This document shows positions 58,722 to 63,466 of a stretch of 64,000 nt of DNA, piece after piece (positions within the stretch are counted from its first letter, which is position 1; each line of letters begins with the position of its first letter). The notes below the pieces were generated by a model, which was not told where the DNA came from, ran no database searches, and worked only from the letters and a program-made list of their open reading frames with translations. Both the position numbers and the translations under genes were made by a program. The stretch lies in the IMG/VR virus record IMGVR_UViG_3300036715_001140, positions 82,794-146,793 of that record. One strand, 5' to 3'. Origin of the DNA: a virus.

Positions 58722-61412
58722 TTACTCTTCTTCATCGCCTTTAGCTTCTACATTTTTAACTTTTTTGTCAAAAAATAGTTGCATTGCAAGTCCTTTATCA
58801 AACTGTTTAAAGCACTCTCGTCTAATATTAAAAGGTTTATCTTTATATCCTATTTGATTATATACTTTTGCAATCTGTTCTTTTGTACCTAAAACTAATG
58901 TTTTTAATTGCATCCAATTCAATTTTGGTTTTAATCCTTTGAATGAAGGGAAATTAAGTAAAAGCTTATTGCGACCACCACTAACTTGACCTGTCATTCT
59001 AAGATATTCATAGCAGTCCCACACCGGATCAAATCCTCTTCCTTTACCTTCATTGTCAGAAACCCATATACGTCCCCAACCTTCAAGATTTGGTGCTCCA
59101 AGTTTATTCTTAATAGCTCTCCAGTTTACGTACCTGTATGTATCAATTCCCTCTCCAGTTACAGAAGGTTCTTCTTCAAACTGACCTTTACCAGGAGGAG
59201 GACAAGCACGACTAGCACAACGGATGCGTGCATCACTATTATGACTAATTATACCATTTGTAATTATTGTATGTGTTTCAGGCATAGTACAGTCATAGGT
59301 AGTTTCTGGGCACAAATTCCGGTGTACTTTTTCTACTTTAGACCAGATTATATTATGATCCAATGTATAGTTTACTAAACTCTCGATCTCTGAGATAACC
59401 TTAGTAGAGTAAGCTCGTTCTTGCTCAGTACGATATGAATTTGCTTCTTTCCAAAGTTCATCAAGAACAAGTTTAATTTGTTCAGCAGTAAAATGCCGTC
59501 TATCATTTGTTATTCCATAGTTTTTATCATACTTTAATTTTGTTAAAAATGCCTGTTGGATTTTCTTATTCTTTTCACGCCAATAAAAAACTTCTGGCAT
59601 ACATTTAGATTTATCTACCAAATTAGCCTTATCTATTGTAAATCTATTGTATAAAATTTCTTCTTTTTGTTCTGAACGAACAGGTATTTCATTTAAAAAT
59701 AAAGAAATGTTTTTACCATATATTTTTAGAAAGGAGTACTCATTCTTAAAATGAAATTCTTTATCTAGCCAGCTAGGTTTATTGTTGTCTACTTTGGTTA
59801 CAATTCCAAAGTTTAATAAAACTACTTGAAGTTGATCTATAAGTTTGGAACTACTAGAACTATATACTATTTCCTTACTTCCAATTCCATCATCACCAGA
59901 AAATAAAGCTCCAATAAAATAAGCAATTGTTTCTTTATCTGATTGTAAAATACTCCATGGTATACACTTTTCTCTTGAAGACTTGTTATTTATTCCTATA
60001 AAATTAAAAAATTGTTCAAGATAGGTAGAATAAATGTCAAGTACATATTGTTTCTTATACTTACCACCTTTTGCAGTTTCCTCTCCATCATGAGTAATAA
60101 GTTTCTTTTTACTGTCTATATACTCATCATCAAAGCCAAATACAGATTTTAGACACTCAATATAATCAAACATTATTGACTTGTCGGTATTACTAAAAAT
60201 AACTCTACCTTCTCTTACATGACCTTCACTAATAAGATACCCAAGTAGTCTTGCCAACTCAGGTGTCATTCTTTTTGGAAACTTTGGTACAACTTTAACC
60301 TGATTAGTACCTTGACCCAAATTAGGCTTAAATTTAAAACCAAGCTTAAGTGGATTTGACGCCCAAACATTTGAACCTGATTTTATTGCAACATAATATT
60401 CAGGTGTTAAGTCTTCGAGATTAACCCAATCTGGAATCCTTGAACCTTGTCTAATAGCATATACTTTATGCTCGTGCCTACCACTAATATTATACCCTAA
60501 TTCAGTCTGTACCTTACAAATTGGATGAATACCCATATTAGAATAATTTTCTTGTTTCTCTTTACTAGACTTTGATGCAATAAAACGAGGTTTAACAGAG
60601 TAGGCTAACTCACCTGTTAATATACCCTTACTTGTAAATAGCATAGTGTCCTTATGGAAGCAAAAAAGCTTTAAAGCCTCTCCACAAGGTTCATACTCTG
60701 GATTACCAAACATAACCATTGGTCTTAAACGTAATTGATTTATACCAATAATAGTAATCTTCTTAGGTTTTAACTTTGATTTTATTCGTTTGATCTGCTC
60801 ACTAAACATGCGAGCTTGTACCGCCATAGCTGAACCTGGGTCATCTTCATCTTGCTTTTCAGGTAACATCGCCGGATAACTATCTACAATAAACAAAGCT
60901 TGATGCTTTACATAAGATTCTGTGGGAACGTATAGCATACCAGTTTTCTTTGTTAGTTTTTCATCTAACTTGTCTTTTACTTTTGCTCTAAAAATCTTTT
61001 CATCCGGATATACATAATACTGCTTTTCACCAACCATTTTAATGTCTGGTAAAGTACGCAATAGTTTTGCAACTGAATCAAAGAATGCCTCTGCTGTTCC
61101 AGGTTGATAATAGCGTACTCTTGGTTTTACTATCCAATTACCAGAGTCATCTCTTAAACCGAAAATATTTTGAATGTCACCTTTTACATTCATTGACTTC
61201 ATCATATTTTCAATATAATCTGGTGAGCTTGAGTTGTGCGTAATAATGCCATTGGTTATTATCGAGTGTGGGACATCTTTTTCTTCTAGTAGACTTAAAT
61301 CCCAAACAGGCTTTTCACCCGTTTTTTCTATGCTAGTTATCTTTACTGGTTGCAAACCAAAACTAGCAATTATCGCATCTGCTTGTTCCTTACTGGTTGT
61401 TATTAGCTCCAT
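58722..61412 (-). CDS. recA: RecA C-terminal half with intein C-fragment and internal intein
   Basis: 896 residues with its own GGAGG site. Residues 1-60 are a split-intein C-fragment ending ITNGIITHN before Ser61. Residues 61-250 are RecA (QALFIVDSYPAMLP, IIGINQLRLRPMVMFGNPEY). Residues 251-725 are a complete intein. RecA resumes at Ser726 (DARIRC). After joining to the N-half at Gly170, the extein reads YDYEG-SSSPDYI, which fits RecA spacing after Walker A. This is the phage recombinase for strand exchange. Confidence 0.92.
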   Translation of the reverse strand: MELITTSKEQADAIIASFGLQPVKITSIEKTGEKPVWDLSLLEEKDVPHSIITNGIITHNSSSPDYIENMMKSMNVKGDIQNIFGLRDDSGNWIVKPRVRYYQPGTAEAFFDSVAKLLRTLPDIKMVGEKQYYVYPDEKIFRAKVKDKLDEKLTKKTGMLYVPTESYVKHQALFIVDSYPAMLPEKQDEDDPGSAMAVQARMFSEQIKRIKSKLKPKKITIIGINQLRLRPMVMFGNPEYEPCGEALKLFCFHKDTMLFTSKGILTGELAYSVKPRFIASKSSKEKQENYSNMGIHPICKVQTELGYNISGRHEHKVYAIRQGSRIPDWVNLEDLTPEYYVAIKSGSNVWASNPLKLGFKFKPNLGQGTNQVKVVPKFPKRMTPELARLLGYLISEGHVREGRVIFSNTDKSIMFDYIECLKSVFGFDDEYIDSKKKLITHDGEETAKGGKYKKQYVLDIYSTYLEQFFNFIGINNKSSREKCIPWSILQSDKETIAYFIGALFSGDDGIGSKEIVYSSSSSKLIDQLQVVLLNFGIVTKVDNNKPSWLDKEFHFKNEYSFLKIYGKNISLFLNEIPVRSEQKEEILYNRFTIDKANLVDKSKCMPEVFYWREKNKKIQQAFLTKLKYDKNYGITNDRRHFTAEQIKLVLDELWKEANSYRTEQERAYSTKVISEIESLVNYTLDHNIIWSKVEKVHRNLCPETTYDCTMPETHTIITNGIISHNSDARIRCASRACPPPGKGQFEEEPSVTGEGIDTYRYVNWRAIKNKLGAPNLEGWGRIWVSDNEGKGRGFDPVWDCYEYLRMTGQVSGGRNKLLLNFPSFKGLKPKLNWMQLKTLVLGTKEQIAKVYNQIGYKDKPFNIRRECFKQFDKGLAMQLFFDKKVKNVEAKGDEEE
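59238..60662 (-). mobile_element. Complete intein with LAGLIDADG endonuclease
   Basis: 475 residues. It starts Cys251 (CFHKDTMLFTSKGI, block A), has a block B NISGRHEHKVYAI, and ends ITNGIISHN before Ser726. The two LAGLIDADG helices are LARLLGYLISEGHV near 387-400 and TIAYFIGALFSGDDGI near 495-510. It is inserted after GEALKLF, the conserved RecA stretch (E. coli GGNALKFYAS). Cis-splicing and homing both look possible. Confidence 0.92.
61233..61412 (-). mobile_element. Split intein C-fragment
   Basis: 60 codons. KPVWDLSLLEEKDVPHSIIT is block F and NGIITHN block G, with Ser as the +1 residue. Starts at its own ATG. Confidence 0.9.
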
Positions 61413-61498
61413 AAAACCTCCACGTTTTCTACTTTTGAGATACGTAATTTATTGTATACTATGATTATGAACCATTACATACAACGAAAGGATAAATT
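61413..61498. promoter_or_regulatory. Divergent intergenic region
   Basis: 86 bases between the endonuclease start (plus) and RecA C-half start (minus). It must hold both ribosome binding sites (GAAAGGAT and GGAGG) and perhaps divergent promoters; TATACTATGAT could serve as a -10. No firm promoter assigned. Confidence 0.4.
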
Positions 61499-62665
61499 AT
61501 GCGAAGACCAACAAAAAAGAAGTTGCTAAACGCACAATTAGAAACATTCGTTCTGAAAAAGAAACATACTAGATTGCTTCGAGAGATATATGAAGATAAA
61601 AACATCCCAAAAGCAAAGAAGATTATTGAACTACGTAGACGAGATGAGATGCTACATTTTTATGTACGCAATTTATTTACAGTAATACATAAAAAACAGA
61701 AAACAGTTAGAGAAATTGTCTTTAATCTTTGTTACCGTAAAATAAAAGGCGTGTGTAAAACTTGTGGGTCACAAACTAAATTTGAAGTTAACTGTAGTTG
61801 GTCGTATGCTCCTTATTGTTCTCGTACTTGTTGTAATAGTAATGAAGAAACAAAAGCTAAAAAAGTACAGTCCAGTTTAGAACGATACGGCTGTGAGAAT
61901 ATTTCTCAAGCAAAGTCTATTAAGAAAAAGAAGGTTAAAACGTGGTTAAAAACTTTAGGGGTAGAATACCCACAACAAAGCAAAAAAGTACAGTCTAAAA
62001 CAAAGAAAAACTTTCTTAAAAAATGGGGCGTAGAAAATCCTTCACAAGTTAAAGAAATCCAGCAAAGAAAAATTGATACTTCTTGGGAGAAGTACGGAAC
62101 TAAAGAGCCTAATCAATCAAAGATAATAAAGCAACAAATAGTAAACAGCAATTTACTTAAATACGGAGTAAGACACCCAATGCACGTTCCCGAAATCTTT
62201 GAACGTACAATGCGCGCTGCCCATCGAGTAAAAAAATTTAAGACTCAAGGAAAGTCTTTCAATTACATGGGATACGAAAAGTACTATATTAAACAGCTTA
62301 TTAGAAAAGGAATACTCGCAGTTAATATAAGCACTAAGGCTTGTGACATGCCTGAAATATACTATAAAATGGATGGAAAAATTAAAAAGTACACACCCGA
62401 TATTATATATACCAATAAAAAAGGAAAACAGATTGTGGTTGAAGTTAAAAGTACTTGGACTGGAGGTTTAATAAAGCAAAATCGTAGAACATTTTATGAG
62501 TTAAAAAAGAAATCACAAGCTGCTTCAAAAGTATGCAACTACAAAGTTGTGTTTATAAATAAACAAGGTACAAAAAGAGTAGTCCTCAAGAACCTACACG
62601 AAATGAACTTGAGGACTGTAAAGGCGTTGGTACTACCTTTGTTGAAGAACAACGTCACCAACTGA
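61499..62665 (+). CDS. PD-(D/E)XK homing endonuclease
   Basis: 388 residues, the only plus-strand gene. Cysteines at 86, 89, 107 and 111 form a zinc knuckle. Five repeats of a YGxxNPxQ type (RYGCENISQ, WGVENPSQ, KYGVRHPMH and others) resemble NUMOD DNA-binding modules. The catalytic set is Glu260, PD at 300-301 and EVK at 315-317. It sits between the RecA halves, as in the fractured split-intein loci known from environmental phages. Its end overlaps the RecA N-half by 33 bases. Confidence 0.85.
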   Translation: MRRPTKKKLLNAQLETFVLKKKHTRLLREIYEDKNIPKAKKIIELRRRDEMLHFYVRNLFTVIHKKQKTVREIVFNLCYRKIKGVCKTCGSQTKFEVNCSWSYAPYCSRTCCNSNEETKAKKVQSSLERYGCENISQAKSIKKKKVKTWLKTLGVEYPQQSKKVQSKTKKNFLKKWGVENPSQVKEIQQRKIDTSWEKYGTKEPNQSKIIKQQIVNSNLLKYGVRHPMHVPEIFERTMRAAHRVKKFKTQGKSFNYMGYEKYYIKQLIRKGILAVNISTKACDMPEIYYKMDGKIKKYTPDIIYTNKKGKQIVVEVKSTWTGGLIKQNRRTFYELKKKSQAASKVCNYKVVFINKQGTKRVVLKNLHEMNLRTVKALVLPLLKNNVTN

Positions 62666-63466
62666 GAGTTCTTCAATCATTTTCCAAGCTAGATTACCGT
62701 CTGCAAGTTGTACCATAAAAGGGTGCTTTGATCCTTCAAGCGTATTACCTGTTTCAGTAGTTATTTTCAAGCACTCTTTTATTCCACCGTAAAATACTCT
62801 AGCTCTAACTGTACCACCCAAAGTATCAACCGCAGGAATTTCTACGTCCAAAAACCCAGGTTGTTCTGGTAAGGTTTCTTGGAAGTTTTTTGGAAGAATG
62901 TCCATAAAGGGAACCGCGTTTCCTTCTATGGAGTAAGTTGTGTCTGTTGTGTGACAGCCTTCATAGTCATAATAGCCAATTAAAGGTGTATCTGTATTTA
63001 TCGCAGCTATAATGCATTGCATAGCAAGTGTAGATTTTGCAGATTGTTCTTGTCCAAAGAAAGTATACCAACCGCCACCAAGAATACCACCACTAAGAAC
63101 TAAATCCTGCACAAGTAAACCTGTACTTAACTTTGCTCTAGCATCTACAGAGAGTTGACTACTTCCAGTATCATACTTCTTTTCAATGACATCCATTACA
63201 TCATCATAATCAATAAAAGAATTTAACATGCAAGTTGCTTCTTCCTTTGAAGATTTTTTAGACTTTCTTACTTTATATTTTGTTTCATCTTCATCATTGA
63301 AAGAACTAACTTTAGGTTTTACAACTTTCTTCATCTTCTTACTTTTCTTTTCTACTACAGTGTCTTCATTCTTACTACCTTTAAGCTTCTTTTTCTTTTT
63401 CTCAATAGATGAAATTTTATCCTTAACTTTTGATGATGAGGATGAAGATGTTTTTTTAGCTTTCAT
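62633..63466 (-). CDS. recA: RecA N-terminal half fused to intein N-fragment
   Basis: 277 residues. Residues 1-80 are a Ser/Lys-rich extension. Residues 81-170 are RecA, with Walker A GQEQSAKST at 138-146 and ending LIGYYDYEG. Cys171 begins the split-intein N-fragment: CHTTDTTYSIEG (block A), and GNTLEGSKHP plus IEELSVGDVV (block B). The protein stops there. It needs the C-fragment for splicing. Confidence 0.92.
   Translation of the reverse strand: MKAKKTSSSSSSKVKDKISSIEKKKKKLKGSKNEDTVVEKKSKKMKKVVKPKVSSFNDEDETKYKVRKSKKSSKEEATCMLNSFIDYDDVMDVIEKKYDTGSSQLSVDARAKLSTGLLVQDLVLSGGILGGGWYTFFGQEQSAKSTLAMQCIIAAINTDTPLIGYYDYEGCHTTDTTYSIEGNAVPFMDILPKNFQETLPEQPGFLDVEIPAVDTLGGTVRARVFYGGIKECLKITTETGNTLEGSKHPFMVQLADGNLAWKMIEELSVGDVVLQQR
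62636..62956 (-). mobile_element. Split intein N-fragment
   Basis: 107 codons from Cys171 to the stop. Cys1 codon is 62954-62956. The fragment contains the splicing-domain blocks A and B without endonuclease sequence, as expected for a natural split intein. Confidence 0.9.

What the first reader, a model, noticed from the sequence alone, without database searches (positions are those of the whole stretch)
61233..63466. RecA encoded in two pieces joined by a split intein, with a homing endonuclease in the break
The sequence shows a RecA N-half ending in intein blocks A and B, and a RecA C-half beginning with blocks F and G and Ser+1. The extein ends meet inside the conserved RecA core just after the Walker A region. 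A free-standing nuclease gene on the opposite strand fills the gap. This is the 'fractured gene' arrangement known from environmental phage split inteins (gp41, NrdJ and others); a fractured recA also carrying a second intein looks novel to me.
Basis: partly seen in the sequence, partly recalled or inferred. Interest (0 to 1): 0.93.

Follow-up and report, generated by a model that had tools for sequence, protein, structure and literature searches.

The report
Phage recombinase gene split by intein
A large phage encodes its RecA-type recombinase in two separate genes, with a selfish DNA-cutting gene lodged between them on the opposite strand, and the two protein halves carry a split intein that should stitch them together; this is a new case of the known 'fractured gene' arrangement, and relatives with unsplit versions of the same intein may show how such splits arise.

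Summary
recA-N (62633-63466, -) is a 170-aa extein ending YYDYEG plus a 107-aa N-intein. recA-C (58722-61412, -) starts with a 60-aa C-intein ending THN, then Ser+1, and carries a contiguous 475-aa LAGLIDADG intein further on. A 388-aa PD-(D/E)xK homing-endonuclease-like ORF (61499-62665, +) lies antisense in the break. The spliced 531-aa product aligns without a gap across both junctions to uninterrupted phage RecAs, including a 77%-identical relative empty at both sites. The break falls one residue after the position of E. coli RecA's Glu96. Two divergent phage contigs (L017, L072) have the same split at the same site with an antisense endonuclease, so an assembly error is unlikely. Two others hold the same intein unsplit: a mini-intein (L085) and one with an HNH endonuclease (L084) at the split point. 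Fractured RecA-family genes already exist in public records (T4-like uvsX), and fractured recA with a second intein recurs here, so this is a new member of a known kind. Trans-splicing and homing are inferred, not shown.

The parts
62633..63466 (-). recA N-half CDS, 277 aa (N-extein + N-intein)
   Evidence: RecA match
62957..63466 (-). RecA N-extein, residues 1-170, ending YYDYEG just after the Glu96-equivalent; contains Walker A GQEQSAKST
62636..62956 (-). N-intein (IN), 107 aa, CHTTDT...VLQQR, Cys1
62633..62665 (.). 33-bp convergent overlap of the 3' ends of the N-half and the endonuclease gene (38 bp in L017, 47 bp in L072)
61499..62665 (+). free-standing homing-endonuclease-like gene, 388 aa, DUF7487, antisense in the break
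62276..62449 (+). PD-(D/E)xK active-site residues E260, D301, E315, K317 of the endonuclease
   Evidence: invariant in 18 relatives
61413..61498 (.). 86-bp divergent gap between endonuclease and C-half starts; Shine-Dalgarno GGAGG for the C-half at 61417-61421
58722..61412 (-). recA C-half CDS, 896 aa (C-intein + C-extein interrupted by a second intein)
61233..61412 (-). C-intein (IC), 60 aa, ending SIITNGIITHN, followed by Ser+1
60663..61232 (-). RecA C-extein part 1 (C-half residues 61-250)
59238..60662 (-). second, contiguous intein (C-half residues 251-725, 475 aa) with LAGLIDADG endonuclease, at EALKLF|SDAR
58725..59237 (-). RecA C-extein part 2 (C-half residues 726-896)

Best explanation
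This is a fractured recA of a jumbo-type phage. Two polypeptides are translated from separate ribosome-binding sites: recA-N with a 107-aa N-intein, and recA-C with a 60-aa C-intein plus an internal cis-splicing intein. The two intein fragments associate into one class-1 HINT domain; Cys1 and Ser+1 act, Asn cyclises at the C-terminal HN, and the exteins ligate at DYEG|SSSP. Independently the second intein excises at KLF|SDAR. The product is a normal 531-aa RecA. The antisense ORF in the break is a PD-(D/E)xK homing endonuclease at the intein's usual endonuclease insertion point; it most likely cuts recA alleles lacking the insert and is copied in with the intein. Shown by sequence: the parts, the exact junctions, empty, mini and HNH-bearing alleles, recurrence, and constraint on both extein halves. 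Inferred: trans-splicing, DNA cleavage, homing, and the direction of change from contiguous to split.
For: Exact junctions and gap-free spliced alignment to intact RecAs. Intein profile colinear across the break. Same split, same site, antisense DUF7487 ORF in L017 and L072. Same intein contiguous in L084 (HNH inside) and L085 (mini), with the split point at the HNH insertion point; the five are mutual best matches. HINT-fold model of the L085 allele retrieves solved inteins. Closest relative L007 is empty at both sites. Low pN against pS on both sides of the break, 0.15-0.19 against 0.80-0.84. Own ribosome-binding site upstream of the C-half. Endonuclease with invariant E...PD...ExK. Split-allele RecAs are not one clade (AU p 0.0009), as expected of a mobile or repeatedly lost element.
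Against: No splicing or cleavage data. The joined intein scores below Pfam's curated cut-off, and block B lacks the usual Thr three residues before the His (LEGSKHP). The three site-a endonucleases are not mutual nearest relatives, so intein and endonuclease may not have travelled together. Endonuclease fold matches are weak (best E 0.0076). No promoter-like site above chance serves the C-half. The record may be a fragment, so a second recA elsewhere cannot be excluded.
Confidence: 0.9

Rival explanations
1. A decaying gene: an endonuclease insertion broke an intein-containing recA, the halves no longer splice, and the phage lives without its RecA or on the host's.
For: No splicing data exist; the record is possibly incomplete, so another recombinase could exist.
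Against: Extein halves are constrained relative to L007 (pN 0.15-0.19, pS 0.80-0.84); catalytic Cys1, His, HN and Ser+1 are kept in three divergent split alleles; C-halves keep ribosome-binding sites.
Confidence: 0.06
2. The RecA split is real and spliced, but the antisense ORF is a passenger endonuclease that does not target recA; it merely landed in a tolerant spot.
For: The endonucleases of the window, L017 and L072 are not mutual nearest relatives; the window's nearest nuclease domain sits in a fractured helicase of the sister phage, and DUF7487 relatives lie in many other contexts.
Against: A DUF7487-family ORF lies antisense at the same position in all three recA loci and in the fractured helicase, at the point where canonical inteins carry their endonuclease. 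Four chance landings are unlikely.
Confidence: 0.2
3. Assembly or binning artefact: fragments of different phages joined in one contig.
For: The window is the end of a metagenomic contig, and no reads are available.
Against: The same arrangement occurs in two other divergent contigs; the two halves sit in the same gene neighbourhood as the intact recA of L007, with the same two downstream genes, and show the same divergence from it.
Confidence: 0.02

Closest known systems
Fractured genes with split inteins and free-standing endonucleases (Dassa et al. 2009; cited in PMC7891396, PMC10448857, PMC3653736; original not held)
   Same: Enzyme gene broken in two by a split intein with an endonuclease gene in the gap; break at the usual endonuclease position; phage.
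   Different: Gene and site (recA, next to the catalytic Glu), DUF7487 PD-(D/E)xK endonuclease, antisense orientation with overlapping tails. Whether that paper lists recA or antisense cases could not be checked.
AceL NrdHF split intein (PMC7891396)
   Same: Fractured-gene layout in a phage-like contig; 98+48-aa split intein, here 107+60; split where endonuclease domains sit.
   Different: Class 3 intein in nrdHF with a GIY-YIG endonuclease; here class-1 residues (Cys1) in recA.
Fractured uvsX of T4-like phages (Proteus phage Pm5461, Salmonella phage SEA1, Shigella phage SP21535)
   Same: RecA-family recombinase in two pieces, split intein, endonuclease ORF between; best non-site-a match to the window intein.
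   Different: Break at GG|TGxMYSAD in another part of the protein, GIY-YIG-like ORF (by eye) in sense orientation, no second intein seen.
Contiguous inteins in jumbo-phage RecA (Alexandravirus and Salmonella phage Sen-NF records)
   Same: Same insertion site as the window's second intein (ALKxY/F|SD).
   Different: Contiguous, and no intein at the site-a break.
Mtu RecA intein (PDB 3ifj, 2imz)
   Same: HINT fold; intein in a RecA.
   Different: Bacterial, contiguous, at a different site (position from memory).

Membership tests
Fractured gene (Dassa type) | Enzyme coding region in two ORFs, each ending or starting with an intein fragment | tested here: met
Fractured gene (Dassa type) | Free-standing endonuclease gene between the two ORFs | tested here: met
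   DUF7487 / PHROG homing endonuclease, PD-(D/E)xK residues invariant; activity not tested
Fractured gene (Dassa type) | Vsr-like endonuclease (half of the original loci, from memory) | tested here: inconclusive
   pattern is E...PD...ExK with a weak TnsA-like match; fold matches are general PD-(D/E)xK nucleases, weak
Split intein (class 1) | Nucleophile at position 1, block B His, C-terminal HN, nucleophile at +1 | tested here: met
   Cys1, GSKHP, HN, Ser+1; conserved in five alleles; block B Thr absent
Split intein (class 1) | Fragments together form one HINT domain | tested here: met
   profile colinear across the break; fold shown only for the homologous contiguous L085 allele, pLDDT 62
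Split intein (class 1) | Trans-splicing activity | not testable with these tools
   needs co-expression
RecA/UvsX recombinase | Conserved RecA core with Walker A and catalytic Glu | tested here: met
   PF00154 E 3.4e-13 on the C-half, N-half weak (E 0.012); E. coli RecA alignment places E169 at Glu96
Homing endonuclease | Site-specific cleavage of the allele lacking the insert | not testable with these tools
   empty allele found in L007; cleavage needs an assay

The most novel reading that the evidence does not exclude
The locus is one state in a recorded conversion of a single recA intein from contiguous to split: a DUF7487 endonuclease gene inserted antisense at the endonuclease loop, its tail supplying the end of the N-intein, and broke the gene. 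The same antisense layout in a helicase gene of the sister phage suggests a mobile gene-breaking unit rather than a passenger.
Probability: 0.35. Interest if true: 0.68.

Novelty: new member of a known kind. Interest (0 to 1): 0.52.

Why it matters
Naturally split inteins are valued ligation tools, and how they arise from contiguous inteins is an open question. Here one homologous site in phage recA holds four states: empty, mini-intein, intein with HNH endonuclease, and split intein with an antisense endonuclease. That makes the conversion directly testable. The break lies next to the catalytic Glu, so neither half should be an active ATPase and this phage's RecA should depend wholly on trans-splicing. 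Three naturally split alleles and two contiguous ones are also practical reagents to test.

Tried and rejected
Single-sequence pattern scans of viral contigs with the N-half, the endonuclease and the C-half found nothing; alignment-based scans succeeded. A genome-contig scan for the C-intein/extein junction found none, and no annotated phage record matched the L085 site-a intein. The idea that the three antisense endonucleases are one orthologous gene was not supported by nuclease-domain comparison. A dedicated promoter for recA-C was looked for: promoter-like sites do not clearly exceed shuffles (27 against 22.6, sd 3.8) and none lies on the right strand in the gap; in L017 the gap is only 11 bp, so read-through across the antisense gene or an internal promoter remains possible. 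A multiple alignment mixing whole halves with contiguous proteins was useless for the intein part and was replaced. Dassa 2009 could not be read; no open paper joining UvsX and split intein was found.

Full report
1. What is there. On the minus strand, recA is encoded by two ORFs. The first (62633-63466) is a 170-aa N-extein ending YYDYEG followed by 107 aa beginning CHTTDT and ending VLQQR-stop. The second (58722-61412) begins with 60 aa ending SIITNGIITHN, followed by SSSPDY. It also carries a 475-aa insert between EALKLF and SDARIR, running from CFHKDT to NGIISHN, with LAGLIDADG matches. Between the two ORFs, on the plus strand, is a 388-aa ORF (61499-62665) whose 3' end overlaps the N-half by 33 bp. 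The window is the right end of a 146,793-bp virus record. Its neighbours include phage replication genes: SbcC/SbcD-like, clamp loader, topoisomerase II and a Dda-like helicase.

2. The two halves are one RecA. Removing both inteins gives a 531-aa protein that aligns without a gap at either junction to uninterrupted RecAs of Pseudomonas phage PaBG and Phage NCTB. It is 77% identical over the tree columns to L007, which is empty at both sites. Against E. coli RecA, YYDYEG|SSSPDY lines up with FIDAEH|ALDPIY, so the break is one residue after the position of the catalytic Glu96, about 24 residues beyond Walker A. Compared with L007, pN is 0.15-0.19 and pS 0.80-0.84 in all three extein segments: both sides of the break are constrained. 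No other recA was found in the record.

3. The insert is a split intein. The joined IN+IC matches Pfam Intein_splicing across the break in order (E 2.7e-5, below the curated cut-off), as does the homologous pair of L017 (E 7.9e-7). The C-half shows two intein C-terminal motifs. A profile of three joined split inteins matches the Ssp DnaB intein structure over most of its length (E 4.9e-7). An AlphaFold model of the homologous mini-intein in L085, of modest confidence (pLDDT 62), retrieves solved inteins first (probability 1.00, E 6.8e-7).

4. It recurs, split and unsplit. An alignment-based scan gave 69 recA loci in viral contigs. Two of them, L017 and L072, have the same split at the same residue, with a DUF7487 ORF antisense in the gap and tail overlaps of 38 and 47 bp. 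A scan with the C-intein/extein junction added L084 and L085. L084 has a contiguous site-a intein with a NUMOD4-HNH endonuclease inside; L085 has a contiguous mini-intein. All five site-a inteins match each other better than any intein at another site, so they look like alleles of one intein. Aligned, the split point of the three coincides with the HNH insertion in L084 and a loop in L085. On the RecA tree the three split alleles do not form a clade (AU p 0.0009); the window's sister L007 and L017's sister L008 are empty. This fits mobility or repeated loss. The direction contiguous-to-split is not rooted.

5. The endonuclease. The ORF matches DUF7487 (E 5.6e-35) and PHROG homing endonucleases (E 2e-18). 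Across 18 relatives the invariant residues are E260, P300, D301, E315 and K317, a PD-(D/E)xK pattern. The model (pLDDT 77) shows tandem helical repeats before a mixed alpha/beta domain, and its best structural matches are PD-(D/E)xK nucleases, but weak (best E 0.0076). The window's closest nuclease domain is L169, in the genome of the sister phage of L007. That gene also lies antisense, with a 24-bp tail overlap, between two ORFs of a helicase that carry intein fragments. So the antisense, tail-overlapping layout was seen at four loci in two genes. Because the three recA endonucleases are not mutual nearest relatives, independent or replaced insertions are possible.

6. Expression. In the window and L072 the C-half has a clear ribosome-binding site, and L017 has a likely one. 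No promoter-like site above chance lies on the right strand in the 86-bp gap. The C-half is thus read either through the antisense endonuclease gene or from a promoter not recognised here.

7. What is known. The arrangement belongs to the fractured genes of Dassa et al. 2009, which could not be read but is cited in PMC7891396, where AceL NrdHF has a 98+48-aa split intein and an endonuclease gene in between. Annotated T4-like phages already hold fractured uvsX with an endonuclease ORF in sense orientation, at another site. The window's second intein sits at a site used by Alexandravirus recA inteins. Fractured recA with a second intein also occurs in L072 (split a plus contiguous c) and L085 (contiguous a plus an atypical split at b with a 31-aa N part). 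The finding is therefore a new member of a known kind. Its added value is the allelic series at one site and the repeated antisense layout.

8. Shown and inferred. Shown by sequence: parts, junctions, recurrence, empty and unsplit alleles, constraint. Inferred: trans-splicing, nuclease activity, homing, order of events.

Noticed in passing
L085:4170-8843: recA with a contiguous mini-intein at site a and an atypical split intein at site b (31-aa N part, 703-aa ORF without Pfam match in the gap): the mirror image of the window.
   Followed up: partly
L169:274-3315 (same place in L180): In the sister phage of L007, a helicase gene appears fractured by a split intein, with a PD-(D/E)xK endonuclease gene antisense in the gap and a 24-bp tail overlap.
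   Followed up: partly
L106:1888-7446: Family-A DNA polymerase fractured by a split intein, with a DUF7487-like ORF in sense orientation between the halves.
   Followed up: partly
L179:104-4058 (Klebsiella phage KP13-7): nrdA looks encoded in three pieces with two split inteins and two ORFs in the gaps.
   Followed up: no
L148 (and L149-L152), L135-L137, L156: C-intein-like starts in what look by eye like fractured family-B polymerase and terminase genes near DUF7487-type ORFs.
   Followed up: no
L046:3342-6260: Contiguous LAGLIDADG intein inside the Walker A motif of recA (EQSCK|C...HN|ST).
   Followed up: partly
G000:C1:71752-72576 (L175), outside the window: A further contiguous intein with LAGLIDADG in a ribonucleotide reductase gene of the same phage record.
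   Followed up: partly
G003:C1:157068-163094: The phage of L084 has a cluster of several DUF7487 matches within 6 kb, one stretch with stop codons.
   Followed up: no
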